Of a stretch of DNA of 64,000 nt, positions 930 to 55,540 are shown piece after piece (the first letter of the stretch is position 1; each line of letters begins with the position of its first letter). The stretch comes from Lethocerus indicus (lineage: Eukaryota; Arthropoda; Insecta; Hemiptera; Belostomatidae). Both the position numbers and the translations under genes were made by a program. The stretch lies in assembly GCA_019843655.1 (NCBI GenBank), contig JACDQD010000007.1, positions 25,562,365 through 25,626,364 on the forward strand, written 5' to 3'. Under the pieces are notes generated by a model. That model was not told the origin of the DNA. It worked only from the letters and a program-made list of their open reading frames with translations, and searched no databases.

Positions 930-975
930 GTACATACCTGAAACAGACAAAAACAGACGGGACACATTAATAACA
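930..975 (-). other. recursive splice site (ratcheting point) 1
   Basis: On the minus strand a pyrimidine-rich tract, CTGTTTTTGTCTGTTTCAG, ends at 938 and is followed directly by GTATGTAC (937-930). This joins a strong 3' splice site to a strong 5' splice site with no exon between them. Upstream on the same strand are TTAAT-type sequences that could serve as branch points (about 965-985). Such zero-length exons are known in long introns of insects and some vertebrate genes, where the intron is removed in steps. Sequence on either side does not resemble the other two sites, so this is not a repeat copy. It would be the last of the three to be used. Confidence 0.72.
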
Positions 976-2888
976 TTAATAAAAACTTTCTTTTTCATAT
1001 AAAAATATTATTGATAAGTCGCTCTGCGAGATGCAAAAACAAAGTTTACATAGAAACAGAGTATTATAATTGATTACTTCATTTCTTAGGATATATTCCC
1101 AGTTTTCGTTATCGTCATTTATACTTTCTCAGAACCCGTTTCCATACGAACCGCAAAGGCGTACTTCAGAGTAGTCAAAGTAGCAGTTTCTGGGATTCTG
1201 TTAAATTTTTAAATTTCGTTTAAATGTGATTTAGTGATGATCAAATAACAATAATTAAATCTACTGATCTGGCTTCGATTCCCGGTGGCATACGAAATGT
1301 TCCTTCAACTTTAAATACGAATTTGTATTACAATGTTAATTTTAAAATTTAATGAACTGATCTCAAGAGCTTCAAGTACACAAATTAGAATTTAGTACAA
1401 CTTACCGTCATAATAAGACCCCTTTTCTATTCTATTAGTTATTATTCATTGATTGTATTCATATTTTAGACATTTCAGTACAATCGTCTTCCTTATGTTA
1501 CGGTTCACGCCCAAAACAATCCACCCGAATTTTTTAAAGGCCAAAGTCAGCTTCACTTCGTTGATTTGGGAAAATAACGCGACACGATCGTTGCTATAAA
1601 ACCTACCACTTTTCACGGGTTCGCACTCATTGTCCCGTACAGGCCATCAAACGAATATTTATTGCGGTCATAAAAGGTTGACAATGCCAAAGTAACATTT
1701 TACGATGTCCACATTTATTGTCCTGTCTTCTTGTGGGCGACTGAAAACGCGAAGAAATAAATTTCTGTTAATTATGTCTGATAAGACATCAATTTCTTAT
1801 GCATACAATACCGCAAATGTGAACGCAGCCTACTCACAATATGGATTAGTTTGAATTCTGCTAAAAGATATATCTCCATGCGTATTAAAAACCCATTTTT
1901 CGACACTGACTCTATAACAATGAAGCTGCCCTTTTAAAAGCCGATTATTAAAGTTTCGAAAAGCCCGTCATACACGGGACGAAACGCGGGCGGGGGAGGG
2001 ACTTCGATATCGCGAAGCCCCTGTTTATATTTATACTCTGGCAGGCCTTATCGGACTTAATAATCCCTACACACGACCCAAAACTGTTGTCCCTCTTCCA
2101 GTCTCGTTCGTTCTGGGCTAACCTGAAAACTCAATAGCGAAACTGTTATAAAACATTTTTTCGCTCGCGCACTCCTTCCTTTATTTTTACAGATATAAAT
2201 TTGATTTTGGGAACATAATATATATTGTTTTTATCTGATAAATTTACAATAAGCCAATGTTAAACACAACAAAATAAGGACGAGAGTATTCTTCAAAAAT
2301 GTGTTGACAGAAGTTAAAATAGACACTGCTATAATAAAAAATTATTTATATTTAAATGGAATTTTTGAAATAATCGAAATAGTAATACCAATATAATAAT
2401 AGTATTATATTGATATTTGGTGACAACTATTTTTTTGATGCGACACTTAAAAGGGATTTTTGAATGTCTTCTCGAAACGTTAAAGCTCAGGGGCGTTTTG
2501 GACCTCAGTTTTCCTACGCAGCATCCTCGTCATTATAATTAATCGCAATTAATATTGTACGGCCGATAGCGTTCTAAAATAGGAGAGCCACCGGTTTCGT
2601 TTTTCCTGTTGAGAAATCGGTTGCGTTTCCTGGAAACGACAAAACCGGGCGACTACTTCCTCTGTGGGAGGCCCTCGGCAAACCAATATGGCAACAACGT
2701 ATTTGATATTTAATAATATCAAATACGACATTGAAGACAATATAACTATTATTAATTACTGGCAAATGCGATAGTTATTGCCTCCGTGCTGCCCCAACGC
2801 TCTCAACATATTTCAGGGCGAAGAAATACCCGGATTCGTATCCAGGTTGGATGAAACCAACATTGTATGTAATGATACTGAGAAGTAA
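976..2888. other. no recognisable feature
   Basis: AT-rich sequence with stops in all frames. A tRNA B-box-like ggcttcgattcc near 1270 has no A box or cloverleaf around it. A minus-strand donor-like ACGGTAAGTTG lies near 1400. Neither supports a gene. Confidence 0.5.
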
Positions 2889-2920
2889 GCTACCGAAGAT
2901 AGCGGCAAGCCGAAACCTGT
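2889..2920 (+). repeat. family A arm fragment
   Basis: Reads gctaccgaagatagcggc, then aagccgaaacctgt, a diverged match to the family A ribozyme-like block. The U of the CUGA box is changed to C, so the core is broken. Confidence 0.6.
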
Positions 2921-2965
2921 GTGGGATATGGCGAAATCAGTTTTTTATCACTTTTCTGGGCGGAA

Positions 2966-3020
2966 TTTGTGAAGGAGGTGCTCTCAATACTGCCTGTTAA
3001 CTCATTCAAATTTTAAACTT
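2966..3020 (+). repeat. family B repeat, partial
   Basis: Contains gctctcaatactgcctg followed by ttaactcattcaaatttta, matching the family B core seen best at 29230-29350 (gctctcaatactgcc, a variable spacer, then aaattctgaact). Family B is a dispersed non-coding repeat of unknown class. Confidence 0.55.
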
Positions 3021-3349
3021 ATTTGCTCAGGGGCACGGTGTAAAGAGCGTAAGACGAATATTTTCAACAAATGATCGCCAGAGTCGTATTATTTTGAACC
3101 GTTTCCGAAATGAAAAATAAATATTAATGATAGCGCGATTTATTTTCGTACCGTTTTGTTTCGGTACATAGGTACCGGTTTACTCTACAGTCAGTAACGA
3201 CAGGTTGGTATCGAAGGTGCTCGGTACTCATCAGGGCAGAAGTGCGCATGCGCGGGAGCGGAAGAATGAGATCACGCGACATCAGTGGGCGTCGGAACGC
3301 TCATCGAGACACTGGGAAAATAATTTAATTTTTAAGAAACAGTCGACAG
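3021..3349. other. no recognisable feature
   Basis: Short AT-rich interval between two family B fragments, with nothing supported. Confidence 0.4.
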
Positions 3350-3402
3350 GCAGCATGAAAGCAAAACTTTCACAGATGCCAACCAGAAGAGAGAATGAAC
3401 GA
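3350..3402 (-). repeat. family B repeat, partial
   Basis: gcaaaactttcacagatgcc, then aaccagaagagagaatgaac, matches the minus-strand outer part of family B as seen near 25410-25430 and 40180-40205. Confidence 0.45.
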
Positions 3403-4214
3403 AAAAAAATTTCATCCAGAAATACTGTAAATATTGAGGATCAACCGCCGTTTCCTAACCTCTATTAATGAAACCCTCTCCTGTATAACTTCAGGGCCAC
3501 GATCTAAACGCGCAGATTCTTCCAACCTTATTCACCGAGAGAATTTGAATTTTCTATCCGACCAATTCCTTGAGCAGCGCCTTTCAAAATAGTTTTCCGA
3601 AGACGATACCACTAGAAGACGGAAAGACGGCCGATAACCGCCACGTAAGGGGGTTTTTCCCTTAATCTCGTACAAGGAAAAAGGGCTTTTTCCACGTAAC
3701 TCTTTCTTTCCTGGTGTTACACATTATATTATAAATTGAACTGTTATCTAACATTCGTAACATATGCACCTCTTACGGCCAACGTGTATAGGAACACCGT
3801 GTGGACGTATTATATGATCAAAATTGTTTCTCAATATGCTTATGTATTAATAAATCTAGACAAAAAGTAAATTGTCATTCTGTCGTACTGTATTTTATAG
3901 CAATTGTACTGGATTAAGAAATTGATATAATTAGAAAAAATATTTTATCGAAATTAACATATTTCAATCCAGTTTGGTTTAGTCATCATCGAACGATAAA
4001 ACACACAAGGTCACATTTTATCATGCCCTACTACAAGTGTCGTTAGTTCATGCGTCTTTTGATATTTTAAAATTGATTAAAACGATACGAAAATAAATGT
4101 AAATAATTCGAAAGAACGAAAAAAATGATTCGAAGAAATGTAGTGGCCTGGTTTTATACTTAGCCGATATACAAGAACATATTAGATACCACTGATACCA
4201 ATTTGTTATAATAA

Positions 4215-4215
<1 letters not shown>
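3403..4215. other. no recognisable feature
   Basis: AT-rich sequence, nothing recognised on either strand. Confidence 0.5.
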
Positions 4216-4278
<63 letters not shown>

Positions 4279-4280
4279 AT
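4216..4280. repeat. (AT)n microsatellite
   Basis: About 50 bases of pure AT dinucleotide, then two gtatat interruptions. The tyrosine/isoleucine frame crossing it is an artefact of the repeat. Confidence 0.95.
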
Positions 4281-4619
4281 TTCTAGGGGTTTGGCAGTGA
4301 TGACAGGACCTAAATACGTGCAGTGGACTAAAATTAGGGCGTGCAGGCAGGCTATGTTGTCCCCGTCTAAATAAACATAGACCAGAACGACAGAAACGGG
4401 CATCGGGCTGAAGAAAAACAGGTCTAACCTAAATATATTTATCTTGTCATCAACGGGAGAAACAGAAGCTATAGAATCACAATTGTCTTCCGTTACAATA
4501 TTCCGCCGCTAATAAATATAACACCAGTCGATCAATCGTCCAATTCGAAAGCGACTTTGCGTTTCCTGCAAAATATATATTCATATGCAGAATAGTAATA
4601 CAGCCAGCAGAATCCTATG
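4281..4619. other. no recognisable feature
   Basis: Moderately AT-rich, no supported feature. Confidence 0.4.
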
Positions 4620-4712
4620 ACAACGTTTTGCTCTCAATACTGCAAAGTTAAGGTACTTTAACCTTAAATTCTGAGCTAATTTCCACTACTTCGTCTCTTC
4701 ATTAGGGAGACT
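4620..4712 (+). repeat. family B repeat
   Basis: cgttttgctctcaatactgc, spacer, ttaaccttaaattctgag, then ttcgtctcttcat. All three family B blocks occur in order, with the same spacing as near 29232-29315. Confidence 0.65.
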
Positions 4713-5300
4713 ACGTTCGATACGTAAACATTCAATCGAAAATCATTGAATCAAATTATTTTAATATTTCAGTATGCTATGGACGCATTTATATAATTAA
4801 ATGTTTGCGTCTCTACATCTCTCATCCAAATTATATTCTAGACAAAGTCCGAGAGTGGTTATTTCATTTGTACGCTAATATGTGTGTCGTTATGTGAATG
4901 ATTGAGCGTTGGTTGGAAATGAAATGAAAAAATATCCGGGCTATTAAAAAAAATTACTTAATTAAAACGAATTAATTTTACAATAAAGGGGACAAAACTG
5001 GAGTGCCTTACCTTCGATGACATGAGTCACAACCGGGCCGATAACCCAGGCACTCGACGCGCAACGTTCACTCAAGTGCGCAGTAGAGCAAACTTAATGC
5101 GCATTAAACTTCGTTTTCAAGGAAAAGAAGCACAGGGCGGTGCTTGGTTTACTGCGGCTTCGCGCGGCCGCTGAGGACGTTAACCTCTATTCCAATAACT
5201 TACAACCATTATTAGAAGAAGTTACGTCCGCAGCTCTTGTTGTTCTCGAGAGAGACACGTGTTTATATATTATTCTTTGTATTGAAGAACAATTAGGTTT
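4713..5300. other. no recognisable feature
   Basis: AT-rich, then a GC-richer patch near 5030-5180. A minus-strand donor-like AAGGTAAGG lies near 5010 without a matching exon. Confidence 0.45.
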
Positions 5301-5555
5301 ACCGTAGATTACGTGTGTTTCTGTCTCCTCTCGCTGGTTTGGTCTTTTGCTAGACCGGTTTAGGATGCTCGCCATCTTCAGTATCGGTGATAGTCACCGT
5401 CACTTGTACTGTGGCCACAGTGACAGTGCAATGAGGATGCCCAAAATAAAATCCAAAGTGCCAAAAGTGACTAACACCGGTACTGAAGATGGCGAGCAGC
5501 CGAAACCGGTCTAGCGAAAGACCAAACCAGCGAGAGGAGACAGAAACACACGAAT
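5301..5555. mobile_element. family A palindromic element, near full length
   Basis: Two long inverted arms: accgtagatt...ctcgctggtttggtc on the left and the complementary gaccaaaccagcgagaggag...cacacgaa on the right, around a 90 bp centre with cagtgacagtgcaatgaggatg. Both arms carry the ribozyme-like block, but the left has cctaaacc in place of the GAAA complement, and in the right the stem I base next to the core is changed (ggta). The outer tagaatacctgttttg ends seen in other copies are missing. No open frame for a transposase, so it is non-autonomous. Confidence 0.85.
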
Positions 5556-6541
5556 TTTGTTCAACAAGGTACCAAAAAAAATAGTAATGCCGTTAATCGT
5601 AAGACTACGTGGAGTTATCTGTAAAACTTATACTAATGAAAATGTTTCACTCGATTTATCCAGTTACAATTTTCTTAAAATATAAAAATGAATATAACAT
5701 TTTAAAATTCTGGCTGGTATATATTGTGCAGAATGATTTGCTTGTGCGGCTAAGGGGCTGTGACACAATTCACATGACTCATGCCGATAACGCAAAAACG
5801 CACTCCCTTATCACCTCCACTGGGTGTACGTACGCACTGGTGTACGTTTTTACATTCGATCGCGGCGCCTCACTTCACACATACGTGGAATGCGTAAAAG
5901 TCTCCACGACGACTCTTACGTAAATCCCAATCTCTAATCTCCTAATCTCGTAACTGTTAAGATTTCGATCAGGCCGGTCTACTATTATTCCCATTTAAAG
6001 TGCAGACTTGAAGTTGAACGGAGAAAAATTCCCTTTTTAAGTCGGACTTTTATTTGCCGCATGAACAGTTTTATTTTCCAAAATGAAACTCTATTCGGAC
6101 GGAATGTATTTCGAAATTCCGCGATGTTGAATTTCAAGCGGATCGAAATTATAACATAGCATTGATTCTAAAGTAAACCTAAAATCTCTGGGACTATAAA
6201 ATGCTCTAAAACTAATATACGTACAACACAAGGATTCTACGTTTTCTCACGCTCTATTCTTAGCCGCAAACCTAAAACTTGGATTAACCCGTGACGTTAG
6301 CCTAAATATATTATATTTATAAGATATAACTCCATCGTGCCGAGTAATCGTCACCCGTGACTCCGTTTTAATAATAGAACACGGAGCGTCATGAAGAGAA
6401 CGGAGGATGAGCATTTGGAATCGGTTCAACGTATCGAACAATGAGACCGGCAAAATTTTGTTCCGGACACATTTTAAGGACAAATTTTGGTTAGATTTCG
6501 GTTTAGATAGTGGTTAGTAAGAAGTAAAGGGAAATATGATT
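5556..6541. other. no recognisable feature
   Basis: AT-rich spacer with frames up to about 100 codons that show no known motif. Nothing supported. Confidence 0.45.
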
Positions 6542-6840
6542 TAGAATACCTGTTTTGCGGTCTGCGAGGCGTTGGAATACCGTAGATTTCGTGTGTTTCT
6601 GTCTCCTCTCGCTGTTCTGGTCCTTTGCTAGACCGGTTTCGGCCGCTCGCCATCTACAGTAGCAGTGTTGATGTTTTTTTGGCATCCTCACTGCACTGTC
6701 ACTATGGTCCACAGGATGCAGTGAGGATGCCCAAAAAACATCCAAAGTGACTATCACCGCTACTGAAGATGGCGAGCGGCCGAATCCGGTCTAGCAAAAG
6801 ACCAAACCACCGAGGGGGCGGAAACACATGAAATCTACGG
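6542..6840. mobile_element. family A palindromic element, left end complete
   Basis: Starts with the full outer end tagaatacctgttttgcggt, then ggaataccgtagatttcg, arm, centre with gcatcctcactgcactgtca, and the complementary right arm to aaatctacgg at 6840. The outer right end is missing. The left-arm core reads CUGUAGA (A6 lost) and the right arm reads GAAT in place of GAAA, so neither ribozyme-like core is intact. Confidence 0.87.
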
Positions 6841-7005
6841 AAATATAATAGTACATCGAAAATCTCCACACCGATTCCCAACAATGCTTATAAGTATGCT
6901 CGCAGGTGGCATACCGCTTTCATTTCAATATACGAGACGCTATTAAGCGGGACAGAAACTTTATTAAAATATTCGTCTGACTGGACAGACATACAGTCCC
7001 TAACC

Positions 7006-7030
7006 AGGAGGAGGAGGAGGAGGAGGAGTA
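7006..7030. repeat. (AGG)n microsatellite
   Basis: Eight tandem AGG units. Confidence 0.9.
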
Positions 7031-10000
7031 GCAGTCGAGATATTCCCGAAATTCGATGGCACGTAGCCAGGCACGTTTACACCGGATGGGTGACACATGG
7101 AAATATCTCGCGTTCCAAGGGGTTTGGGGGGGGTTTAGCTCGCATAAACTCAAATAAATAAAACCCTCAAAATATACATTCGAATATCTGTTCAATTGGA
7201 AGCGGACCATTTCCACGCCGGGTTCCCGGGTGACTCAGCAGTGTTGTCGGCTATTTGTGGTGACGTTAACGGGATGTCACCGGACAGTTGAATCGTGAAT
7301 ATTAACAAAAGCACGTTCACCGGGCCGGCGTCAGCCTGAAAGAACGTTCACCAAAGTAACCGTCGGTACATTTTCGTTTATTACAGTTTAATTATACAAT
7401 CGATGACATTCAATATATAATACAAGAATTTATATACGAATTCAAATTTCGGGCGTAATGGCCCGAATTGACGGAGTTTTCCGCGACCAGAACTTGGCTT
7501 CCGGTAAGATCAGGTAACTGTTGTGGTAAGGGTTTAACCCGCTGTTTCCCCGTTATTTTTGGTAATTTGCTTATAAAAGATTCTCAAGATAATCATATAT
7601 TTTCTAACGATTTACACTTTTTTTCTGATTGCAACACGATGTCTTTTGTTGTGAGAGAAGTGGGAGGAGTCGCGCTTGAATTGAAATCGTAAGAATGAAA
7701 AATGTGTTCGTTTGATACCATTTATTGTAAAAGGAGAAATCATACTTTTTGTTATTAACATATTTTAGAGACAATGACAACAGGATTTATCCAAAACAAA
7801 GAAAAACGTATTTAAGCAGTACTTGCTATTATATTTCATTTGAATAAATTGACAGTTAGTCCTGAACACTACTAATTTCATTTAAAGTAACGTAAAATCC
7901 GTACTAATATTTTTGTAATGGCGGGAACGAACTAACAGCAAAAAGACGGACCTTTCGTTAGGGTTAGTAATACTACTATGCCGTGGGGGGATTTTCAAGT
8001 TTGACCGTTGCTAATTTGAATAGGTGAAAGTAAAAGAGATCCCATCAGCGCAGTAAGCCTCGTTTTCAACTTATTCCTCAATATTTCAACCGTATATTTT
8101 TTTCACCGTTAATATTACGCGTACGCCCATTTTGAACTCTTGCGTGAGGGTTATCATTATGGCTCTCAGTCAATATTCAATTTATCATATATGAATTCGC
8201 GGAATTTCCATCAATTTCGAGTTATTTTTCCAATCATAAACCGGAACCCCCCGCAACGTGATGTGATACCGGTCTATTTTTATTTCATCAAACCGGCGGG
8301 AAAATTCTTAATTTTTTTCGGCCAACTCAAAGAGACGCCACGCGCAAATTGGAAGAAAGATTAAAAGAAAAAACTCGAAAAGATACGTTTCGATGCGTCA
8401 ACGTCCGAAAAATTTGGCACGGCTCGGCCGGCGAGAGATTGGATTCGACCGAAAAGGGAAAAACGTCGATTTTTTTTTATAAAATTTTATAAAAATATAA
8501 AAAGAATTTCTTCGAGGAAGGACGTGGAAGGACATATTTTTTTCCTGTAAATACTTTCGGCCGAAACCCCAAAGAGAGAGAGGTTTCAATTTAAACGAAA
8601 AGATACTGCTTTGGGAATAAAACTCTTGTCCGTAGTCTAAAGACTTTTCCGACAGTCGAATATCATAAATCAGATTTCTTTCAAAAGTAAGAAATAATAC
8701 ATAATTGTAATTTGCACAATAATAACACGACAAAATGCGACCCTGAGGTCTCATTTCTCTTATATTTATAGCGATATAAATAATTATTTTATTTATGCTC
8801 TCTGCGAAGACACAATTTATCGTTTCAGGACGCGATTGAAGTTAAAATCGTCCACTTTTGAAACTGAGAATACACTGAGATTTAAAAGCGGTCCTGCCGA
8901 TGTTTCGTAATATTATCAAACCGTTTACATTATCCATCGAATGAGTAACAGTGCCAACAGGATGCTCGACGATAAGTGTGATTTCACTTGTAGCTAATAG
9001 ATTAGGGGGCCTAGACAAATAGTGAACACGCGATAGTCGGAAACCCGCACTGTATTTATTTCTGTTCGAAACGACCCAACTGGGCACAGTGCTGACGATA
9101 AGACGGTACCGTTACGTTTTAAACGAGAAATCTACGGAAAAAATAAATTTCTCCAGATGCGCCGAACAATAAACTATTTTAAACAGTTGTTATAAAAATA
9201 AAAATTCTTAATTCACCGATATAAAACTCTCTCTATATAAGGGTTTATTTGGGAAAGAAACGGTCTTTCTGTCCGTTGCTCGAATTCCCGAAAACGGCGA
9301 GCGGAGAATAAGTGCATGTTCGTTTTAAAGAAGAAAAAACAGAAGCCAAATACAAAAGAGGGTCCCGGGAAGGGGGGCTGCTTCCAGCGAAAGTTATGTC
9401 AGCCGTAGATAAAACAGTTCATTAACTGTATCACAGTTGGAGGAAGGAACGAGCGGAGGGAGAGAGGGAGGACGACATCTCGATAAACGCTCTCAAACTC
9501 CTGGCCCCTTTTGAAGTCTATGTCATATCCCATCTGAAATATAAACGCGCGCATATTTAGAAAATGACGCTATGTTTATGTGGAAGGATAACGCTTTGTG
9601 CCCCGGCGGTGAAGTCAGCAGACCCGCCCGCTGGGGCGCAGTCCCCTCCTCTCCATTTCTGTTCCGACTTCGTTTTAAATTATACCCCTTTACCATCCGG
9701 TCGAAACGGGGCCGTTTTTGACTTATTAATATAAAGGGGATAATGAAAAAAAGTGGTAGTGTAGTACAAAGTGGAATTTAAAAATGAAAAGGCCGCGCAG
9801 AGGAATAAAAGCGCCACAGATTCGCACCTTGTTAGAGAAAAAAAAATTTCCAAGTTAAAAGTACGACTAAAATCCCGGAACAATTTTACTCTTCAAAAGG
9901 TGACTCTTTTACAGCTATAATATTCCATTTAATTAAGTGCGGCGTATATTTATTCAATAACAAAATTCAATGATTGTGAATCAATTTGTCGGAATTCTGA

Positions 10001-10915
10001 AGGTAAATGCATTAGATTTACATTCGTTTTTACTTGTCGATATTAAACATTATTTTATCACGTCTCTTGTACTGATATAATTGTTTTATGTTCCGAAGAT
10101 ATAGCTCACACTATATTTTTAATACAGGAACGTTACCGACACAGCGGTGAGAATCTGAAACCAGAAACCCCTGACCCGTATGATGACATTGGTATTTCTG
10201 AATATGTTTTATATTTTTGAGTAACGCGAGGTTTTAAAAATACAAAAAAAAATACCCACTAAAATCAAATGGGATATTTGAAGGGAACTTCAAGCCTGGC
10301 GCTGCGTACTTGAGTATCTTATCCCTCATGTATATCTTATCGGGAATTTGAGCACTCTGAACGGTTACAGGAGAGGATTTGGGATGGAAAAAATGGCTCG
10401 ACGATCAAGTGAGAATTTTCGAAACCACCCTCGTCAATATTCAGAATCCGATTCAAAAAAACTTAAAACTTCGTCTTCGTACCGAACGAGCTCGGTGTAC
10501 ATGAAACTAATCGATCGTCACGATCGTATTGTATTCCTGAATATATTTTTGAACAATATGTTTTTGAATTTAAAAAAAGTGGTAATATCGCAAGATCTGT
10601 CGCTTGGGATATTCAAAAGGGATTGCCTGACGTCATATGTAAATTCTAAGCTTCTCGGATTTAGTCCTATTTTTAGATTTTTGTCGAACGATATCCGCGT
10701 TTTTAACACGATGTCACAACCGAGTAAAACCTTTGTACTTCGAAGAAATGCAAAATATTCCTGGAACTAAGGCGGAGAAACCTACTACTGGACGGGGGAA
10801 TCCTGCCTGGTCGAGGTGGGAGACCGAGAGGAGAGGACCTTGAAGTGAAATTTGAAGGCCAGATTATATTGGACGTCTCGCCGGCCGGATTATAAATCAC
10901 AATATTTTTTCTTTT
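7031..10915. other. long featureless intronic or intergenic stretch
   Basis: Nearly 4 kb of AT-rich sequence with short G runs, for example near 7125 and 7985. Frames on either strand stay under about 140 codons and show no known domain. A 10-bp palindrome acggtaccgt lies near 9103 and an isolated gaaatctacgg, possibly a family A scrap, near 9127. No other feature is supported. Confidence 0.45.
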
Positions 10916-10951
10916 CCACCACCACCACCTCCTCCTCCTCCTCCTCCTCTC
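10916..10951. repeat. compound (CCA)n(CCT)n microsatellite
   Basis: About four CCA units followed by seven CCT units. Confidence 0.9.
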
Positions 10952-11594: not shown

Positions 11595-11657
11595 GAAAGT
11601 TTCGCTCTCAATACATGCTCGTCGACTGGTTCTTGAACCTTAAATTCTGAACTCCAG
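11595..11657 (+). repeat. family B repeat
   Basis: gtttcgctctcaatacatgc, spacer, ttcttgaaccttaaattctg, then aact. The core and second block are both present. Confidence 0.6.
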
Positions 11658-14622: not shown

Positions 14623-14670
<48 letters not shown>

Positions 14671-41518: not shown

Positions 41519-41530
41519 GTTGTAAGGTTG

Positions 41531-42786: not shown

Positions 42787-42809
42787 CTACTACTACTACT
42801 ACTACTACT
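42787..42809. repeat. (CTA)n microsatellite
   Basis: Seven to eight CTA units. Confidence 0.9.
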
Positions 42810-45504: not shown

Positions 45505-45536
45505 GGCGAAAAGCCGAAACGGGTCTAACTTGAGAC
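45505..45536 (+). repeat. possible family A core remnant
   Basis: ttggcgaaaagccgaaacgg gtctaac keeps the stem II hairpin, GAAA and gtct, but the CUGANGA box has decayed. Confidence 0.4.
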
Positions 45537-46600
45537 ACCCGCTTGAGACGTGTGCGCGAAGACAGAAGATGGTCGGTCGCAAGCCTGATGACGTTAATAG
45601 GCCATTGTCTATTTTTGTGCGCACAAACGGACAGAACTTTCTGGTTGTACCAATAGAGAGGTTTTTGTCGACGGTCGAAACGGATCCGGGCCAAATAGGA
45701 GACAATATTTAAAGATGACTTAAACATAATTCAATATTCACTTAATAAATGGTTAATATTTATTTCAAATTTAATGAAAATTACATTTCTTCAGACCGGG
45801 TTTTCCAAACAGGGGCGTAGCGATAACATTAGTTTTTTGTTTGTACTACTATTAAAAGAACTAATTTTAATTAGTTACTAAAAAAAGACTCCTAGACAAA
45901 CTCTAAACAGGGCTGCAAATTGATCACTTTGGTTTTTTAATTAAAATTATGTTTTGGTCACATTTAATTATATTCTTAAATAAATTATTACCTAAAGGCA
46001 AGGGTTCCTAAAGTGTGGCCTCGTCCTAGAAATGTGGTCCGCAGATCATCCACAATTTTATTTTTAGAGACAGATTGCGGGACATAAAAAAAAGGTTTAA
46101 ACACAAATGTTTCTTATTCTAATTCTACCAACGATAGAATCGTCCTTCTTCAGGACAATTTCGCCCACATTCCATGCCATATGTTTTATATTTATTTTTA
46201 TTTAGGGGTGTAATAGTCGATCTATAATTTTGTTAGTATATCTGTTCTATTTTCTCGGGGTTATTGTCAAGCATACGGCGGGTATTAATATTTCAAGAGG
46301 AGTGTGCCAGGATCCAGCGCAGATCGGATGCTGGTTCGATTCCCACTGGACTGGAATATTTAAAATCAATTGAAAATAGTGATAATACGATGATCGTCCG
46401 GAGTTCTCAGCTCCAGGTTAACCGGGAGGCCCAGTGATCTGTACCAGTGCGAAAATGCCGGCCGAACAGAGAGAACGGCAGGAGGGAGCACAACTAGAGG
46501 GGGCGTCACATTATACTTCTATTATTATTAGGTATGCTAGGTATGGGGGCCCCCCTCCCTCAGATCCTATATTTAGAGCTCGTATTCAGAACCTCTCATC
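45537..46600. other. no recognisable feature
   Basis: AT-rich. A B-box-like ggttcgattcc near 46332 lacks a matching T-stem and A box, perhaps a decayed tRNA-derived SINE. Confidence 0.35.
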
Positions 46601-46645
46601 ATTTCTCCGCCGTCTCTTCCTCCTCCGTCTCCTCCTCCTCTTCTC
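46601..46645. repeat. degenerate (CCT)n tract
   Basis: Interrupted cctcc and cgtctc units. Confidence 0.7.
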
Positions 46646-48339
46646 CTTTATCCCCGTTTGGCTATCTTATATTCTCCATCTTTTCTACCCGTATACTCGT
46701 GCACAACGCGACCGACAGAGACTCCGTTCTCCGAGACGGTTCAATTAAGATCGGTTCAAACTGATAATAATAGATTCCGGACGTGAAAAACAATGAAGTC
46801 CATTACAGGTTTTTTTTTCGGCTTAAACCGTAAATTTGGACTATTAAGGCCATTACTACTGAAGCGGACATCGCGCAATTGACCTTAGCCAAAAAAACTC
46901 GCAGTCTACACAACCATTTTAAACGGCATTCAGCTTCGGAGTCCCACCAAGCTGTCCAACAAAATAGGGGATTCCAATCAAAAGTCCTTCCAACTTTCTC
47001 GGTATGTTTCAAATCACAGTTATATCGCTTGAAATTAGCATAACGACAGTCGATCAGTTGATAATATCCCGGCTCCTAAAGTATCATCCATGTACCAATT
47101 CGTTACCTATCCATTATCCCACCCAGAACGACCAAACGCCTCTGGCCCAACATTTTCCATATAGCCAGGATACGCGTCAAAAGTGCCATCGTTATTCGTT
47201 TACTTTAGCGAGATATAAAAAAAACAATAAACTATCCACTATTGTGCTCATAATAATTGTTTGTTGATGGTACAATGAATAAAAAAGAAATAAAAGTCGT
47301 TATTGTAACACATTACTGGCCAGTTCGTCCAGGGGTTGAAATTTTAATGAATTACCATATTAAACCAATAAACAGTAAGAAAAGTCTTATGGAAATTTGA
47401 ACATCGAGGAATGTAAACTGCGTAATCCTTGGTTACACACAAGATAACCGGAAATCACGATATACTCACTTACGGTATGCGGTGAGTGGTATTAGGTATT
47501 CTGTTGTCGTAAATTCCCACGCGGTACACTGACTGTCGTTCGGGTTGATATGAACGCGATAAGAGCCAATCGTAAGGGTGATCATAACTCAATTTCATGC
47601 ATAAAATATTTTACAAGGGCCGATTTTCTTGCAAGGTATTTTACCGCATTTTCCGACCAATTCAAATTGAAATTTTATTTTTCCAACGCGTTTATCTCAT
47701 TGCTCCCACAGCCAATTCCGAACACAGTGGACTACTCAGAAACTTCTCCGTTTAATTGGTTTATACTCTTTATTGTGGCTGCCCATTGTCGCATACAGCG
47801 ACTGCCAAGGCCGACATTAAGTGAGGTGATTGCGTACAGAATTTGTACATTTGCCAATGGAACGGCTAAAGAACGGGTTTCACTTAACGAATTTGCGTCA
47901 GTGATTCACCGCACGAGCACACTGTACCCGCCCCGAACGCACACGTTTATGCGCCATTTAGGTTTCGTCTATTTCAGACTGGCGTCAATTTTCAGTCCGA
48001 ATTTCATTTCGGAGCAACAGTTTGCACGCCATTATATCAACTGAAATGGCCTAATTAGACTATTGTAGCGCTGGTTCGAATTGTGCCGGAAAATAAACCC
48101 AACCACCATGACATTAAAATTTATTGTTGTATTAAAAGTGTAATATATGTTTTAATAATATTTGTTAAATATAAAAAATTATTATTGCTTATAATAAATA
48201 AATATATTTCGACGAATAATTTTTGTAGCCCGTTAAATAACTAATAATGTTGGGATAGTATTTATTTTGACAAACGGGTGGAGGGTACAGAAATGTTGAA
48301 AAACCACTGTTTGTAGATCCATTTTAAATCCGTTTAATG
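46646..48339. other. no recognisable feature; one long unassigned frame
   Basis: A plus-strand frame of 164 codons (47550-48044) is longer than most here. Its product shows no domain, signal peptide or repeat that I recognise, and no splice sites flank it. I treat it as a chance frame. Confidence 0.35.
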
Positions 48340-48512
48340 TGTTTTTCACTGTAGGATTAGGATCACGATAAGTGGGACGGTATCGCGTGACTCTGCACGT
48401 GTGGGTATATCTAGATGGGTACCAAGTAGTCTAGTCATATCCTGTTGTATAATAATGCTAAATTGTTACCATTTTACTTTTCTTGGAAAAGTAATTCCTG
48501 TAGAATTTAACG
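48340..48512 (+). repeat. family Q direct repeat copy 1
   Basis: ggattaggatcacgataagt, ctagatgggtaccaagtagt ctagtc and gtagaatttaac align in order with 48955-49225. Confidence 0.45.
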
Positions 48513-48954
48513 CTTAACATTACGACTTTAAAACGGGGGGCGTACAGGTTATAATAAATATATATCGGTTGAAATGCGGTGTAGGGGGTCCCCGGTTGAT
48601 AACCTATTCGGCGAGGTTATATATCGATATCTAGTTCATTCGATACGGTGACGTACGCGGTACGCGATTGTACCTTTTATTCTTATTAATATATATTGTA
48701 TTTTTATTAATATTGTATATTAGTTTGTTTATTGAAGCGTGACGTCATACATTATTTCGATATATCGTTATAACATCGTTTACGGAAACGTCGACAAATT
48801 CCCGATTGCGATATCATTGCCCGCCCCCCCAAAACTGCAGTTTTACCTAAATATTTTTGAACCTCTGAGAACTATATTTTCCATCGGGAGAGTATTTATT
48901 GCGGGGGTTGCGACAGCTTTATTACGATAAAGTGTTATTGGAAAGGGATGTTTG
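48513..48954. other. no recognisable feature
   Basis: AT-rich spacer between the two family Q copies. Confidence 0.35.
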
Positions 48955-49225
48955 CAGATTTATTTACAGCAGGATTAGGATCATGATAAACCCAAGTGGG
49001 AGTGATCTTATCCAGATGAGTACAAGTCGTTTAGTCCCACTTTGAGCTGTATTAATGATACTACTAATAATATATCTTACGATTTCAAATTTTGAATCGC
49101 AATCACATACATATAACACCTAAAATTACAATACAATCGCCATTAAATAATTCTCTGTTGGCTGCAGTGGAATATTAGAATGTGTGTGTAGTTTTCGGCC
49201 TAAACCGGTTGTTGTAGAATTTAAC
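48955..49225 (+). repeat. family Q direct repeat copy 2
   Basis: aggattaggatcatgataaa, ccagatgagtacaagtcgtt tagtc, then gttgtagaatttaac. About 620 bp from copy 1, with more inserted sequence before the last block. Confidence 0.45.
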
Positions 49226-50494
49226 ACCAGAATGCAAGTGGCTGTAAACGTTAATTAGTAACAATAAAGGTTATGTGCGTGCACGTGTGGTTAGGGGGTT
49301 ATGGCCGCGGAGGACGCCGACAGGTTGGGTACGGGAGCCGCTTGGAGCGCTAGTTAGCGGGCGCGTTGAATGGGAACAATGCTCCTTCATCTGTACGTGT
49401 ATCAGAAACATTCGTGTATTGCGATCACGTATCACACACAGTCTGTCTCTCCCCTCCCGACGTGTTCGCAGCCCGCCTGTCTGTCACAGACACGCACGCA
49501 ACTCGACCCACACCTTAATAACACTTTCGGGGGGTATAAATAGAGATTTATTCCATCCTTTCGGGTATACAGTTCGGCTGAAATATTTCACCCCCCAGAA
49601 TGCTTCCGGAGAGTTTCCGGAAAACGTACATTAAAAGAAAAAATTAATATTTTTAATTCACGATACATCCCCCGCAACCCATGCCAGGAATGCATTATGA
49701 AACACAGCCTCTTATTTCAAGCCGTCCCGAACAAACAGCACTGGCGACAGAAAATCCATTATAGTTGCCCATATAAGTTCTGAATTTTATTCCACATACC
49801 GACACTGCTATTTTTAACGGTCTATTTTTCCAGCAGGAACTGCGCTCGTATTCCTCGTAGCTGTTTTCAAAGACCTCATGCTCTACCATTTGCCCAACAT
49901 ATGAGTTTCGACGAATTAATATCTTGCGGTATTTGAAAGCCGCGAGCACGTTTCGCAAAATAAATATTAGTTGGCTTCCGCTATAAAATTTTAAAAAACT
50001 CGGAAAACATACTAACACGGAATTACAACAGGAAATTACGGTTCGGAGATTAGACCTTTGAAAAACGGTCTCTATGCTTTGGCCGTTGGGGGCGCTTTGA
50101 TAATATTTGCAGATATGAGATTTCACCGTATTTGCAGAGGGGTAGGAGCAGACGCGAATGGATTATTCCGGGAAAACTTGGAGGAAATTACGTTCCTGAA
50201 AGTCCTGACGGGCGCATACGGAAGACCATCTTCGCCAGACAGAGGCGTCTATAAGTCGGTGTCTATTTAACATAAATGAAAAGCTTCTGCTGCCAAATAC
50301 TGACGAAACAGAAGGAAAAATTATTCTATTTACGTTTTGGAATCAATACAGTCGGTGGATGGCGCGAACGCCCCCCCGGACAGGGATTACAGGGTAAAAA
50401 CCGGTATAAAATTTGGTTCAGAAGTTAAAAATGCCCAGAAAAATTTTCAAAATTTCAGAAACAGACCTGTTTCTTGTATACGGTAAGGTTCTGC
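49226..50494. other. no recognisable feature
   Basis: CpG-rich at 49275-49500 with no known motif. A minus-strand frame of 143 codons at 49695-50126 is unassigned. No gene is supported. Confidence 0.35.
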
Positions 50495-50548
50495 GAGACA
50501 CAGTTTGTGTTTAATACTGCCTGGCAACTGGTTCCCTGATCTTTACTT
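50495..50548 (+). repeat. family B repeat, very diverged
   Basis: gtgtttaatactgcctggca actggttcc loosely matches the family B core. Confidence 0.3.
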
Positions 50549-52520
50549 ATGGACAAATTTATTCCTCTTAATCGCGGGCCAATCTTCGTTGAGGGACACT
50601 TTTCCTCATTTCCAAACAAGGGAATCCTTCTGTCACCCAATGCCGGGGGTACCTCGCAGTGGGAAAACCTGATTGCATTCATCCGGGTATGGTGGATCAC
50701 TGGGAAAAAGTCACTGTAGGCCGGAAAAATGAGAATGTCGTATTCGCGGTCCATTACTGCGACCGCAATGAACTTCGTCCACTTTATTTTTAGTTCACCG
50801 CATACGAATAATTTGACATTCCTGGAAAAACGACTTTCGACAAAAATTCGAAACGCCGTCCCAACTAAACGCCTCTTTCACTCGTGATAATTCAGTTCGG
50901 GACACTGAACCACAGGCTGGACCAGAAGAGAGGTCACAACAAGTCCAAAGGAAATTCCCGACCAAGAGTGGTTCGGTTTCAGTTCTCGGAAACGTCCCAC
51001 GTATATGTTTACTCTAGGCAGAGCATAACCCGGCCCAACGTCAATTTTATCCTTGATGACTCTCAAAGAGATCTTTGTCGGAAGTTGTAAACACCCGTAA
51101 AAACTTGACATTAAAAAAATGCAATACCATCGATAATAAAAAACCCTTACTCGGTAAAATGTGAACGTATACATGAATGAGTCCATGTTACGAAAAACTG
51201 TTGACAAACCAATATGTGTGAGGGGGGGGGCGCCACTGAGATTAGAAATGCTATTTGGTTCGAAGATAAAACCTGTTTGGGCTTCCCTGATTTATATATG
51301 TAATAATTATTTACTTGCATCATGAACTGACAGTACAACTACAGAACAGTGGTAATTGTCCTCACACTCATAATACAATTAATGGTGCTTATATTTTATC
51401 ATTCGACATCGATTTCTGTACTGTCATGGAGTTAATATTACCTCTGAGTACTTTAGTTTTATTATTTATCGACTCTAGATATAAATAAGAGGGAATCTCC
51501 CCCGATGATGAAACCATCGTATACATAATTACTATCCTCAATAATTTCTCGGAATGTTACGCGCTTTTTATACGGCTCCAGGAGAGGAAAAAGCCCGTCA
51601 ACGAAATATAAAACCAGGAATAGATATCAAGAATAAAAAAAGTCCCATTTCTTCTCCTCCTTCACTGTATTTTACAACCCCAACTGATTAATCCACCGGA
51701 CCAATCACAACTAATACGCGCTAATTCAGTCCCGTTAATACTAAAAAAAATAAGCCCAGCAAACGCCTTAAATGGCACTAAAATACTACTTTACCTTCGG
51801 AAAGGGGCTTCGGGCTCAAAAAAGACCGAACACCCCCAACTGCTATTGAATCCCTTCTGGACACATCGTAGAATATCGACAGTCACGCGACACATGATAC
51901 TACAGAAAATACACACTCGAAAACGAAATTTAAATAATCTTCCCGAATAACCGTTACTTAACTGCCTGAAGGGAATTGAAGGCCCGCCAAACGTGGTCAA
52001 TGCTCGAACGGAGCGCGATGATAATCCAGATTGAAAACGGACAGGGTGAACTATATTTTTCAGATGTTTCGACAGTCTACTAATCCAACGATTGCTGCCT
52101 ACAAACAAAGCGATATGATCGGTACGTTGTTATTTTAAATAAGTAAAAAATGGCGGCCAGGATCGAAAGAACGGAGAAATCGTACCGGATTTTTGTCTCT
52201 CTCCCTGTCTTTCATCCATTACCCGTCAATTCTTTTTCGTTCTCGCTTCTTCCTTTTTTGTTTTTCGTTTCTTTTTTTTAATTCACGTTCCTAGAAACGG
52301 AGAAACGACGACGGCGGAAGGAGCGTTACAATGGGTTCTCGGTAGCGGGTTCCGAGGTTCTAGGAAATCGTCGAACTCGTTTCAACTGGCTTCAAACGTT
52401 CCATCCAGGCGCCCATTCAAGAGTTATAAATTACGCCGGGAAAACCAAAATTCAATTATTTAGCCGAGTCTCTCTATCCGACCTCGTATAAGCGGGAAAT
52501 AGCTCGCATTATCTTAAAAG
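50549..52520. other. no recognisable feature
   Basis: Nearly 2 kb of mixed sequence, with overlapping frames up to 109 codons and no motif. Confidence 0.4.
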
Positions 52521-52542
52521 ACAGTGTCTAACCAGACACTGT
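52521..52542. other. 9-bp hairpin with 4-base loop
   Basis: ACAGTGTCT-aacc-AGACACTGT. A third related block, gagacagcgtc, follows at 52545. Confidence 0.6.
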
Positions 52543-52937
52543 TGAGACAGCGTCCAGCAGACCCATATAATTTGTTACAGTGGAAATTAAATGATTTTCA
52601 TAAAACTTCGATTGTCTTAATGATCTCCTGTTCCCGATTGTCTCATTGAAGGGATTGATCGTGTGTCAATCAATGGTTGGCTAATGCGACCGATCAAGTG
52701 GAAGATCATTTTAAAGAACATCCTGAACAATCTTCTTGAAGAAGTTTCAATAAGATGAGACTTGATTTTATCCCTCCAGAACCATTCCGATCAACGGGTT
52801 CATATCGAAGGTTTTTCCGTTCTGAGAAGACGGGTCGGGGTACGTTTTTTAGCATACTACGACGCAAGAACATATTCATAGGAGAATATGCCAAACTTTA
52901 TTGTTGAGTCAAAAATAATCCTAACAGTTTTTTATAA
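52543..52937. other. no recognisable feature
   Basis: Nothing supported. Confidence 0.35.
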
Positions 52938-53081
52938 ACCGTAGATTTCGCGTCCATCAATCTCCCCTCGCTGGTCCAGTCTTTCGGCTTCTCCCCATCT
53001 TCAGTAGCAGTGAGTAATAAGACCGGTCTAGCAAGACCAAAAAACCGGTAAGGGGAGACAGAAGAACGCGAAATCTACGGT
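52938..53081. mobile_element. family A short derivative, 144 bp
   Basis: accgtagatttcgcgtccat on the left and gcgaaatctacggt on the right, with shortened arms. Between them is a left core piece (ccccatcttcagtagcagtg) and accggtctagcaagacc. The centre is missing and the ribozyme-like block is split. Confidence 0.8.
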
Positions 53082-53693
53082 CATCACTTCAATAAAATTC
53101 TCTCAGAGTGCAGCGACATTGTAAGGTCAGGTTCGATTTTAATACTCGGCGGAAGATTCATTCAACGCACGAACGGAATTTCGTATTTAATATTAAAAGC
53201 CTACAAGCGGTATGACTCAGTGGGGGAGTACCGTGAGGGCTGTGAGGACCGAGGGCCACGTTGTATAACGCTAACAATTAGACAATGGGATAATCGATCT
53301 GAGGCAGAGCCCCAGGCCTCCCACCCCATTATCATTATGAATATTCATCTACACTTCCTTACAATTAAATACTTGTGAACCGTTGCCCTTCGTATGCATG
53401 CCTCGTAAGTGCCCGCCGCCTTCTTTTCAATTGTCCCACTGTACGACTTCCCAAAAGAACTTTGTTTTATTATTCCCGGGGCGTAAGTTAAATTAACATT
53501 TTACTTTCCCAAATACCGACGGCAGAGCATTTATCCTCCCCGAGTAAGCTGTTCAGGGGGCGGGCTCCACTGGAAGGGTTTCTTCCCCTTCCTTCTGGGG
53601 CCCTCTCGGCTGTTGTTGGACCGAGGGCACTTCCCACAAACATTACTCGATCTTACAATTAGAGTTATGGTCGCGGAACATACCTATAATCAG
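53082..53693. other. no recognisable feature
   Basis: Nothing supported. Confidence 0.35.
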
Positions 53694-53921
53694 TTTGGAA
53701 TACCTGTTTTGTGGTCTGCGAGGTGTTGGAATACCGTAGATTTCGTGTGTTTCCGTCTTATGCGTGACACAATCAGTACTAGTGACAATGACAGTGAAGT
53801 GAGGATGCCCAAAAAACATCCAAAGTGCCGAAGTGACTAACACCGCTACCGAAGATGGCGGCAGCCGAAACCGGTCTAGCAAAAGACCAAACCTGCGAGA
53901 GGAGACATAAACACACGAAAT
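53694..53921. mobile_element. family A element, left arm internally deleted
   Basis: Complete left end tttggaatacctgttttgtg, then a jump from tttccgtctta to the centre acagtgaagtgaggatgccc, and the right arm to acacgaaatc. The right core reads CCGAAGA with one base lost from stem II. Confidence 0.85.
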
Positions 53922-53927
53922 CCTCCT

Positions 53928-54094
53928 GTCCTGTGGGAATTATTTTATCCCGGTTATTCACTATCTCCGGACAAGTGGATTATAAGGTTTTCCCTCCGCG
54001 AGATTCCTCTAATATTTGTAATTCGCATCCCTGTCCGGAGAAGTTGGCGTTGTCCCCAAACCCCGTAGGGGTGGAAAAACCTTAATCCACTTGT
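53928..54094. mobile_element. family H inverted-repeat element
   Basis: Arms acaagtggattataaggttt (53971-53990) and aaaaaccttaatccacttgt (54075-54094) are imperfect inverted repeats. Inside, tctccggaca and tgtccggaga pair again. It starts six bases after the family A copy. The left half recurs at 20437 and a piece at 56030. Confidence 0.6.
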
Positions 54095-54308
54095 TTCCAA
54101 CGTTGGGTCAAACAGGCAAACGTTTAGTGAACAACATCGGTAGGCAACGATATACTAATTATATTTAATGAAAATATAAATAATTTGCGGGTATAAGACA
54201 AGCCAAGGGTTCGATTCCCGGCGGTGGCCTTGCAACTTTTCTATCGAGTCCAAAATTCGCTTCAACACGTAATATCTTTCTTTAGTAAGTGTTCAATAAT
54301 TAATAATA
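54095..54308. other. no recognisable feature
   Basis: Contains agggttcgattcccggcggt near 54207, a B-box-like stretch without an A box. Confidence 0.35.
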
Positions 54309-54313
54309 ACTAT

Positions 54314-54386
<73 letters not shown>
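54309..54386. repeat. (TA)n microsatellite, longest in the window
   Basis: About 60 bases of TA between aataactata and tatagttgtt, which pair with each other, so the whole tract can form one hairpin. Confidence 0.95.
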
Positions 54387-54387
<1 letters not shown>

Positions 54388-55495
54388 GTTATAAAGAAAG
54401 CTATTAAAAGAAACAGATATAATGTTTATTTATATCTTGAGTGCATAAGATGGGCGGACAGAAGTATTAGGCAGGGCCAGCGGAAATGCCGGCCTCAGGT
54501 CCAGGCCCCTAGCGGCGTTCCCGCTTAATTTTCACTAGGCGTAAAAATAAAACACAATATGGCGCGACCGGTTTTCAGGGTTCTCCCCCCGACATTATCA
54601 CGCGGCGATGATCTACACGTGAATGAGCTGTCTGATATAGGCACCGGTCAGTTTTTAAAATCCGACACTGTATACGGTTTTCGAAAAAAAGCAACACTTC
54701 AAATACGATACTTTCTTACTAAAATATATGAATAGTTTACTGGGGGGTGGAACTATATTTCGCTTTACAAGAGAAACGAGTGTAAATTTAGCTGCTAGTC
54801 ATTTAATAATATGTACAATATATTCGATTCCTAAATTTTTCTGGGCTTTCCCGTGAACACCAACTTACATTTTGGGACTGGAAGACGCGACCTGTCATTT
54901 CACAATTATTATTTGCAAACGGTACGCTTGAGTTAGACGCGAAAAGGAAGTTAAGCCAGCCAACCGCATACAGTATTATCAGCATAATTAAACATTTTCC
55001 TACAATAACTGAGTGGGGTAATAAACTGCCTTGGATGTTTGGATGATGATAATAATAATAACAACCGGTAGGGGCCGTTAGAAAGCGAATAGAAGAAAAT
55101 AATGGGCTCGAAACAACTATTAAACGGCAAGTACGTGACTCTCCTCAGCTTTGTGTTTCTGCATGCGATGATTCCGCGAAGGGGCCAGCGTTCAACGACC
55201 TGTTTGGGGCCATCCGGGCAAGAATATTACGTGTAAAATGTATATATCCAAATTGATATACATGTCAAAGACATGAATAACAATTAATATACCATTGAAA
55301 TTCAATTAACCGTTCCCGCCTCAGAGGCACGGAATATATTTTTGTTTTTCAAGTATTTTATTTTTGTCGAATAACATAGAATTATTGATAATAAATCCCT
55401 TTAATCAATATGATAGTAAAAGTTTTAAGCTTACCGAAATAAACATTAATTGGCTCGGGAACCAACGAGTTTCATTGTTAACTCCAAAATGAACT
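54387..55495. other. no recognisable feature
   Basis: AT-rich; nothing supported. Confidence 0.4.
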
Positions 55496-55540
55496 TGGTA
55501 CATACCTGTAAACAAACGAAAAAAAGTTATTAATATTTAT
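55496..55540 (-). other. recursive splice site (ratcheting point) 3
   Basis: The minus strand reads ATTAATAAC (possible branch point), CTTTTTTTCGTTTGTTTA, then CAG ending at 55506, then GTATGTACC from 55505. It would be the first ratcheting point met by a polymerase moving right to left. The donor half is identical over 8 bases to the other two sites, while the flanks are unrelated. Function is inferred from sequence only. Confidence 0.76.

What the first reader, a model, noticed from the sequence alone, without database searches (positions are those of the whole stretch)
930..55540. Three recursive splicing (ratcheting) points on the minus strand mark a stepwise-spliced giant intron
At 938/937, 19837/19836 and 55506/55505 the minus strand has a pyrimidine tract and CAG fused to GTATGTAC with no exon between. 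All three share the 8-base donor but have unrelated flanks, so they are not copies of a transposon. The layout (polypyrimidine, CAG|GT, strong donor) is the known signature of zero-length-exon recursive splice sites. Their shared strand and spacing of 18.9 and 35.7 kb would cut an intron of more than 55 kb into pieces. The motif is seen directly; the splicing role and the host gene are inferred. The GTATGT donor differs from the GTAAGT usual in flies.
Basis: partly seen in the sequence, partly recalled or inferred. Interest (0 to 1): 0.9.

Follow-up and report, generated by a model that had tools for sequence, protein, structure and literature searches.

The report
Stepping-stone splice sites in giant intron
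The three sites look like genuine stepping-stone (ratchet) splice points, with a fourth 23 kb outside the window, that would let an insect-like animal remove a 134-kb intron of its schnurri gene in five pieces; the mechanism is known from flies, so this is a well-supported new example and not a new kind of thing.

Summary
Observation confirmed: CAG|GTATGTAC occurs exactly three times in the window, all minus strand at the stated places, each behind a pyrimidine tract. The window lies inside one intron of a schnurri/HIVEP zinc-finger gene: exon MPRRKSQPNTPNK|C ends at 121971, the next starts at -11960 in matching phase (the join is inferred). The intron is 133,930 nt. A scan finds four ratchet-like sites, the three given plus 87250, and none antisense at that threshold; random sequence of like composition gives about 0.25. 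Pieces would be 34.7, 31.7, 35.7, 18.9 and 12.9 kb. Similar sites occur elsewhere in this 427-Mb genome, with GTATGT and GTAAGT donors, some in same-strand series. Site 55505 has a 163-nt relative on another contig, cryptic-exon donor included. Splicing itself was not observed. Against the simplest model, the donor regenerated behind exon 1 (AAC|GTATGTAC) pairs only weakly with U1. New member of a known kind.

The parts
930..940 (-). Ratchet point 4 of 4 (last before exon 2): CAG|GTATGTAC, junction 938/937
941..962 (-). pyrimidine tract of the 937 site (Y 0.82); TTAAT branch-like motif at -33
872..937 (-). candidate cryptic RS-exon of the 937 site (66 nt, donor AGG|GTAAATCA, weak); holds an in-frame stop read from exon 1
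   Evidence: inferred
19829..19839 (-). Ratchet point 3 of 4: CAG|GTATGTAC, junction 19837/19836
   Evidence: its 26-mer is unique in the genome at up to 3 mismatches
19840..19861 (-). pyrimidine tract of the 19836 site (Y 0.82); CTGAT branch-like motif at -28
19805..19836 (-). candidate cryptic RS-exon of the 19836 site (32 nt, donor ACG|GTGGGATA); holds an in-frame stop read from exon 1
   Evidence: inferred
55498..55508 (-). Ratchet point 2 of 4: CAG|GTATGTAC, junction 55506/55505
55509..55530 (-). pyrimidine tract of the 55505 site (Y 0.73); TTAAT branch-like motif at -28
55435..55505 (-). candidate cryptic RS-exon of the 55505 site (71 nt, donor TCG|GTAAGCTT); its first ~35 nt and its donor are kept in the relative at G000:C1:15327572
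55399..55561 (-). 163-nt stretch alike (76.7%) to L006, around the ratchet-like site at G000:C1:15327572-15327582
1..64000 (-). the whole window is inside the first coding intron (phase 1) of a schnurri/HIVEP gene. In window numbering, outside the window: coding exon 1 at 122010-121971 (MPRRKSQPNTPNK + C, donor GTGAGT); ratchet point 1 of 4 at 87253-87240 (CAG|GTATGTAACAA, junction 87251/87250); intron 121970 to -11959; next coding exon from -11960 (acceptor TTTTCCAG|GTGTAA, open frame to -13170, 3' end not mapped); further zinc-finger exons at -17811, -22268 and -23338
   Evidence: the exon join is inferred from phase and homology

Best explanation
The three sites are intronic ratchet points (recursive splice sites) of a schnurri/HIVEP gene read on the minus strand. 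They are part of a series of four in its 133,930-nt first coding intron. The exon ending at 121971 would be spliced in turn to 87250, 55505, 19836 and 937, each time regenerating a GTATGT donor, and finally to the exon at -11960. Five lariats of 34.7, 31.7, 35.7, 18.9 and 12.9 kb would leave and no intron sequence would stay in the mRNA. Shown: the motifs, their strand, the statistics, zinc-finger exons downstream, a phase-matched start exon upstream, and no other protein domain found between the window's sites. Inferred: the exon join, that the sites are used, the order of steps, and the cryptic exon at each site.
For: Exact motif at all three places, 0.03 expected. A scan of the whole intron for a Y tract of at least 0.7 plus YAG|GT[AG][ATG]GT gives 4 sense hits, 0 antisense, 1 on the reversed and 0 on the complemented sequence; 100 Markov chains each of order 2 and 4 average 0.26 and 0.24 (maximum 2), and 0.06 and 0.04 for GTATGT (maximum 2 and 1). 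Flanking exons fit one gene: MPRRK start ending in phase 1, next exon starting in the matching phase and matching P0006 of Ranatra chinensis, with the paired zinc fingers. 0 of 145 ORFs over the window and its edges had a Pfam domain. In the genome, 17 of 68 examined CAGGTATGTAC sites (of 177) have a Y tract of at least 0.7, or 12 of 62 without the C5 and C2 clusters, against 4.9% of background CAGG. Same-strand neighbours within 120 kb: 12 same and 0 opposite for the listed GTAAGT type, 7 and 3 for CAGGTATGTAC. The core and cryptic-exon donor of 55505 are kept in a relative on C1 while flanks beyond about 160 nt are not. Sites of this build are established in flies and enriched in large introns of bee, beetle and mosquito (PMC2773006, PMC6110457, PMC8605326; passages read).
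Against: No RNA data. The regenerated donor behind exon 1 reads AAC|GTATGTAC (AAC|GTATGTAA at 87250) and pairs with U1 at -3.3 to -3.5 kcal/mol, weaker than the original exon-1 donor (-5.8) and than the candidate cryptic-exon donors (-6.2 to -9.2); in flies a strong ratchet donor mostly keeps the cryptic exon out, with exceptions (PMC8605326, passages). At a tract threshold of 0.6 or 0.65 one antisense hit appears, and 3 or 2 on the reversed sequence. The branch-point motif is poor at 87250 (only TTGAT at -10). Exon 1 rests on 13 codons; the search pattern also hit twice on the plus strand of the 314 kb. The 5' end is not mapped, so other first exons may exist. For the rigid 7-Y GTATGT pattern, same- and opposite-strand neighbours were 2 and 2; all three lists together give 35 and 15, some sites counted twice. 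The GTAAGT pattern exceeds its reversed control only 119 to 87. Cross-species conservation could not be tested.
Confidence: 0.85

Rival explanations
1. The sites are acceptors of real, sometimes included cassette (poison) exons of 32-86 nt, each starting with GTATGT; the ratchet donor is secondary and inclusion lowers schnurri output by frame shift or stop.
For: Each site has a candidate downstream donor (+86, +71, +32, +66; at 87250 also +30) and these pair better with U1 than the regenerated AAC|GTATGTA donor; reading on from exon 1 gives a stop before the donor at 87250, 19836 and 937, and 71 nt at 55505 shifts the frame. The 55505 cryptic-exon donor is kept in the C1 relative.
Against: The donors of 19836 and 937 are poor matches to consensus (GTGGGA, GTAAAT). 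The 55505 exon is 71 nt against 70 in the C1 relative, so the frame is not kept. All four sites have the same GTATGT at the exon start, which an ordinary exon would not need; 0.06 or fewer expected. In flies the same anatomy mostly ends in skipping (PMC8605326, passages).
Confidence: 0.1
2. Chance matches to CAG|GT with a pyrimidine tract; the intron is removed in one step.
For: The motif is short and no RNA evidence was available; the genome-wide excess over reversed controls is modest for some patterns (119 against 87; 34 against 25 for CAGGTATGTAAC).
Against: Four hits against about 0.25 expected (0.06 or fewer for GTATGT), none antisense at that threshold; three of the four share 11 identical bases; the series sits in a giant intron, and other same-strand series exist.
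Confidence: 0.03
3. The sites are copies of a transposable element that carries a splice acceptor and donor.
For: 55505 has a clear relative on C1 and a weak one at 87250.
Against: The 27-base block, written to fit those three places and allowed 3 mismatches, occurs besides only at one 3-mismatch locus seen on C9 and C100; 19836's 26-mer is unique; 937 and 19836 share with the other sites little beyond the splice signals within 600 nt on each side. The same test for 937's block did not complete.
Confidence: 0.02

Closest known systems
Intronic ratchet points (zero-nucleotide recursive splice sites) of Drosophila, as in Ubx, kuz and Bx
   Same: Pyrimidine tract and CAG fused to a donor, in very long introns of developmental genes, several per intron, first introns favoured, short cryptic exon downstream (PMC6110457, PMC8605326, PMC2773006; passages read).
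   Different: All four donors here are GTATGT where the consensus quoted for flies is gtaagt; pieces are 12.9-35.7 kb, mostly larger than the 9-15 kb typical of flies (PMC6110457 passage); no RNA evidence here; cryptic exons only guessed.
RP-site enrichment in large introns of honey bee, flour beetle and mosquito (Shepard et al. 2009, PMC2773006, passages)
   Same: Same motif class, excess on the sense strand of introns over 50 kb.
   Different: That is a count over many introns; here one intron with its exons and an ordered series is described.
schnurri / HIVEP (MBP-1) genes
   Same: Same protein family, by paired zinc fingers and MPRRK start.
   Different: No paper holding 'recursive splicing' together with 'schnurri', 'shn' or 'HIVEP' was found in the held library; Duff et al. 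2015 is not held and supplements were not read, so a fly report may exist.

Membership tests
Intronic ratchet point (recursive splice site) | 3' splice site and 5' splice site fused at AG|GT with no exon between | tested here: met
   CAG|GTATGT at all four sites; by sequence only
Intronic ratchet point (recursive splice site) | pyrimidine tract and branch point upstream | tested here: inconclusive
   Tract met at all four (Y 0.73-0.82); branch-like motif at -28, -28, -33 in the three window sites, poor at 87250
Intronic ratchet point (recursive splice site) | lies on the sense strand inside a long intron, between exons of one gene | tested here: met
   133,930-nt intron between phase-matched schnurri/HIVEP exons, join inferred
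Intronic ratchet point (recursive splice site) | enriched on sense over antisense strand | tested here: met
   4 sense, 0 antisense at 0.7; 4 and 1 at 0.6 and 0.65
Intronic ratchet point (recursive splice site) | cryptic RS-exon with a downstream donor | tested here: inconclusive
   Candidates at +86, +71, +32, +66; kept donor only for 55505 in the C1 relative
Intronic ratchet point (recursive splice site) | regenerated donor stronger than the cryptic-exon donor (usual, not universal) | tested here: inconclusive
   By U1 pairing weaker after exon 1's AAC (-3.3 to -3.5 against -6.2 to -9.2), stronger if the native CAG is counted (-9.7 to -9.9); pairing energy is a crude proxy
Intronic ratchet point (recursive splice site) | conservation of the AG|GT core between species | not testable with these tools
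   The tool states that this genome has no relatives there
Intronic ratchet point (recursive splice site) | junction reads, sawtooth, recursive lariats | not testable with these tools
   No RNA data
schnurri / HIVEP zinc-finger family | paired C2H2 fingers of the CAKPSVLxKHxRxHT..FKTKSNLYKH type, and the second pair [22 protein letters not shown] | tested here: met
   (MBP-1, 1bbo, whole chain, among 178 matches)
schnurri / HIVEP zinc-finger family | start MPRRK-like followed by YLHKKFKK | tested here: met
   the two lie on separate exons whose join is inferred

The most novel reading that the evidence does not exclude
Ratchet points are copied as units. The 55505 site, its pyrimidine tract, cryptic exon and that exon's donor (about 160 nt) recur on an unlinked contig at 77% identity with unrelated flanks, and a fainter copy stands at 87250 in the same intron. 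New stepping stones in a growing intron may thus arise by duplication of an existing ratchet module, which then stays under selection as a splice unit.
Probability: 0.3. Interest if true: 0.6.

Novelty: new member of a known kind. Interest (0 to 1): 0.42.

Why it matters
If used, these sites carry recursive splicing to a gene for which the searches named here found no report, a gene that in flies acts in BMP/Dpp signalling (recalled). The series gives a ready prediction, five lariats of known length and four junctions, that one nascent RNA library could check. The related pair 55505 / C1:15327572 offers a way to ask how ratchet points arise, and which bases around them are kept, inside a single genome.

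Tried and rejected
Nested genes between the sites: no Pfam domain in 145 ORFs of at least 84 aa over the window and its edges, one Integrase_H2C2 domain in 103 ORFs further upstream. ORFs under 84 aa, ORFs crossing locus ends and low-complexity ORFs were left out, so a gene of short exons is not excluded. tRNA and Rfam in the window: none. Transposon copies: see rivals.

Donor preference: GTATGT is not a replacement for GTAAGT in this genome; with a 7-Y tract there are 94 GTATGT (control 38) and 119 GTAAGT (control 87) sites. None of the four schnurri sites fits that rigid pattern.

A schnurri paralogue at C1:15.33 Mb, which would explain the related site, could not be tested: the protein search of the own genome did not complete. 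A first Markov run timed out. Duff et al. 2015 is not held. Papers seen: passages of PMC2773006, PMC8553928 (a bee exon said not to be a recursive substrate), PMC6110457 and PMC8605326; abstract and outline of PMC13105047; the rest as listings only (one search listed 10 of 25,592).
Full report
Observation. Read on the minus strand, the stated coordinates carry a pyrimidine tract and CAG fused to GTATGTAC. The 11-base motif YAGGTATGTAC occurs three times in the window, only there and only on the minus strand; shuffles give 0.03 on average and none of 100 reached three. In the whole genome of 426.8 Mb the motif CAGGTATGTAC occurs 177 times, the reversed control 74 times. Three in 55 kb on one strand is therefore unusual.

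Host gene. The window is C7:25562365-25626364 of the genome. I fetched 200 kb on the high side and 50 kb on the low side. On the minus strand below the window stand the exons of a schnurri/HIVEP gene: the first zinc-finger pair at -12475, the second finger pair ([29 protein letters not shown]) at -17811 and others at -22268 and -23338. A 68-residue piece matches human MBP-1 (1bbo) over its whole 57 residues, though other zinc-finger proteins score higher among the 178 matches. A database search returns HIVEP-named proteins and insect relatives. The exon begins at -11960 behind TTGTCTTTTTCTTTTCCAG, encodes VKGDHRQIINLGSLKNRL..YLHKKFKK and matches P0006 of Ranatra chinensis. Because a relative begins with MPRRK (P0003), I looked for that start upstream: the strict pattern has one minus-strand hit in the 314 kb, at 122010, and two plus-strand hits; a looser one adds a minus-strand hit at 172889. 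The 122010 hit reads MPRRKSQPNTPNK + C|GTGAGT and ends in the phase that exon 2 needs (C + GT = Arg). The join is inferred from phase and homology, not from cDNA, and rests on 13 codons. It makes one intron from 121970 to -11959, 133,930 nt, that encloses the whole window.

Four sites, not three. A scan of this intron for YAG|GT[AG][ATG]GT behind a 22-nt stretch with at least 70% pyrimidine finds 87250, 55505, 19836 and 937 on the sense strand and none on the antisense strand; the reversed sequence gives one, the complemented none. At 60% or 65% the sense count stays 4, the antisense is 1, the reversed 3 or 2, the complemented 1 or 0. A hundred Markov chains of order 2 and a hundred of order 4 average 0.26 and 0.24 hits, at most 2, and 0.06 and 0.04 for GTATGT. 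In the rest of the 314 kb the same rule gives one further hit (212972, TAG|GTGGGT). The pieces would be 34,720, 31,745, 35,669, 18,899 and 12,897 nt. Four of the five are longer than the 9-15 kb typical of flies, and the position in a first coding intron fits the reported excess in first introns (PMC6110457, passages).

Other content. Of 145 ORFs over the window and its edges none has a Pfam domain. Of 103 further upstream one has an integrase zinc-binding domain, a retroelement remnant. There is thus no sign of another gene's exons between the sites, with the limit that short exons would be missed.

The rest of the genome. I read 68 of the 177 CAGGTATGTAC sites (8 loci and 60): 17 have a tract of at least 70% pyrimidine, 25% against 4.9% of 1670 CAGG positions. 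The sample includes clusters already visible in the listing; without the four C5 and two C2 cluster sites it is 12 of 62. The four sites at C5:6.655-6.797 Mb, all plus strand, have 0.73, 0.68, 0.73 and 0.82. Patterns with seven pyrimidines give 94 sites for GTATGT (control 38) and 119 for GTAAGT (control 87). Neighbours within 120 kb are 12 same-strand and 0 opposite for the 100 listed GTAAGT sites, 7 and 3 for 100 CAGGTATGTAC sites, but 2 and 2 for 80 sites of the rigid GTATGT pattern; the last with GTAAGT together 18 and 5, and all three lists together 35 and 15, some sites counted twice. Pairs inside one cluster are not independent. Both donor types can share a series, as at C4:19.774-19.839 Mb, where the tract of the third site was not read. 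So ratchet-like series are probably common in this genome, and the GTATGT donor is one of two. Some contigs repeat others, so genome-wide counts are somewhat inflated.

Cryptic exons. Fly ratchet points carry a short cryptic exon whose donor as a rule loses to the ratchet donor, though donor strength does not explain every case (PMC8605326, passages). Each site here has a candidate donor downstream: +86 AAG|GTAGGATC (and +30), +71 TCG|GTAAGCTT, +32 ACG|GTGGGATA, +66 AGG|GTAAATCA. Pairing with U1 is -9.2, -8.2, -7.5 and -6.2 kcal/mol. The ratchet donors score -9.7 to -9.9 with their own CAG, but only -3.3 to -3.5 behind the AAC of exon 1, while the exon-1 donor itself scores -5.8. On this crude measure the cryptic donors should win. 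This is the main result against the simple model; it allows for included poison exons, and it can be tested. Reading on from exon 1 meets a stop before the candidate donor at 87250, 19836 and 937; at 55505 the frame is open to the donor but 71 nt would shift it.

A related site elsewhere. Comparing the sites showed that 55505 and L006 (C1:15327572, plus strand) are alike over 104 nt at 81% (E 2.6e-24) in 150-nt pieces and over 163 nt at 77% in the longer locus, with unrelated flanks apart from dispersed repeats. The likeness covers the tract, the ratchet core, about 35 nt after it, and the cryptic donor GTAAGCT; the cryptic exon is 70 nt there against 71 here. 87250 shares a weaker block after the core (20 of 32 positions with each; mean of 2556 pairs 8.7, best other pair 17). 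In the genome this block, in a pattern written to fit the three, occurs besides only at one 3-mismatch locus seen on two contigs, so it is not a common repeat. 19836's block is unique; 937's did not complete. Whether C1 holds a schnurri paralogue could not be tested because the protein search did not complete. Either the site was inherited in a duplicated gene, or a ratchet module was copied.

Verdict. It is a new example of a known kind, in a schnurri/HIVEP intron of an unnamed insect-like animal. What would raise its interest is RNA evidence or proof that ratchet modules are copied.

Noticed in passing
G000:C5:6655471-6797377 (+), loci L075-L078: Four CAG|GTATGTAC sites on one strand, spaced 28, 67 and 47 kb, with pyrimidine tracts 0.73, 0.68, 0.73, 0.82: probably another recursively spliced giant intron; host gene not sought.
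   Followed up: partly
G000:C10:10901574-11042930 (+), C6:21638894-21711046 (+), C4:19773952-19838926 (+): Further same-strand series of ratchet-like sites with GTAAGT donors, at C4 mixed with GTATGT.
   Followed up: no
L006 (G000:C1:15327572): Ratchet-like site 77% alike to window site 55505 over 163 nt, flanks unrelated; gene context unknown.
   Followed up: partly
window numbering about 77000-80800 (L010), outside the window: Retroelement remnant: one of 103 ORFs matches Integrase_H2C2 (the output does not name the ORF, by eye probably 79431-79910 +).
   Followed up: no
for example window 5419-5554, 6539-6622, 12125-12208, 18663-18847, 26549-26632: Dispersed short repeats, mostly about 80-150 nt and on both strands, also present in L006 (coordinates less 50000); the ORF list has recurring peptides such as QREETETHEIYG, whose link to these repeats was not tested.
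   Followed up: no
window 4217-4280, 14624-14674, 24315-24362, 54311-54384, 61677-61731: (AT)n microsatellites.
   Followed up: no
contigs C99, C100, C133, C144 of G000: Carry the same pattern matches as C8, C9, C3 and C4 at the same spacing to the base (for example 1,378,385 bases between two sites on both C9 and C100), so the assembly seems to hold some sequence twice and genome-wide counts are inflated.
   Followed up: no
window numbering -11960: The acceptor of exon 2 is itself CAG|GTGTAA, so the exon starts with GT; a weak donor-like start.
   Followed up: no
window numbering 145-203 kb, outside the window: Minus-strand ORFs that look by eye like a serine protease (145 kb), Rad21 (158 kb) and WDR44 (191-203 kb); named from recall, not tested.
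   Followed up: no
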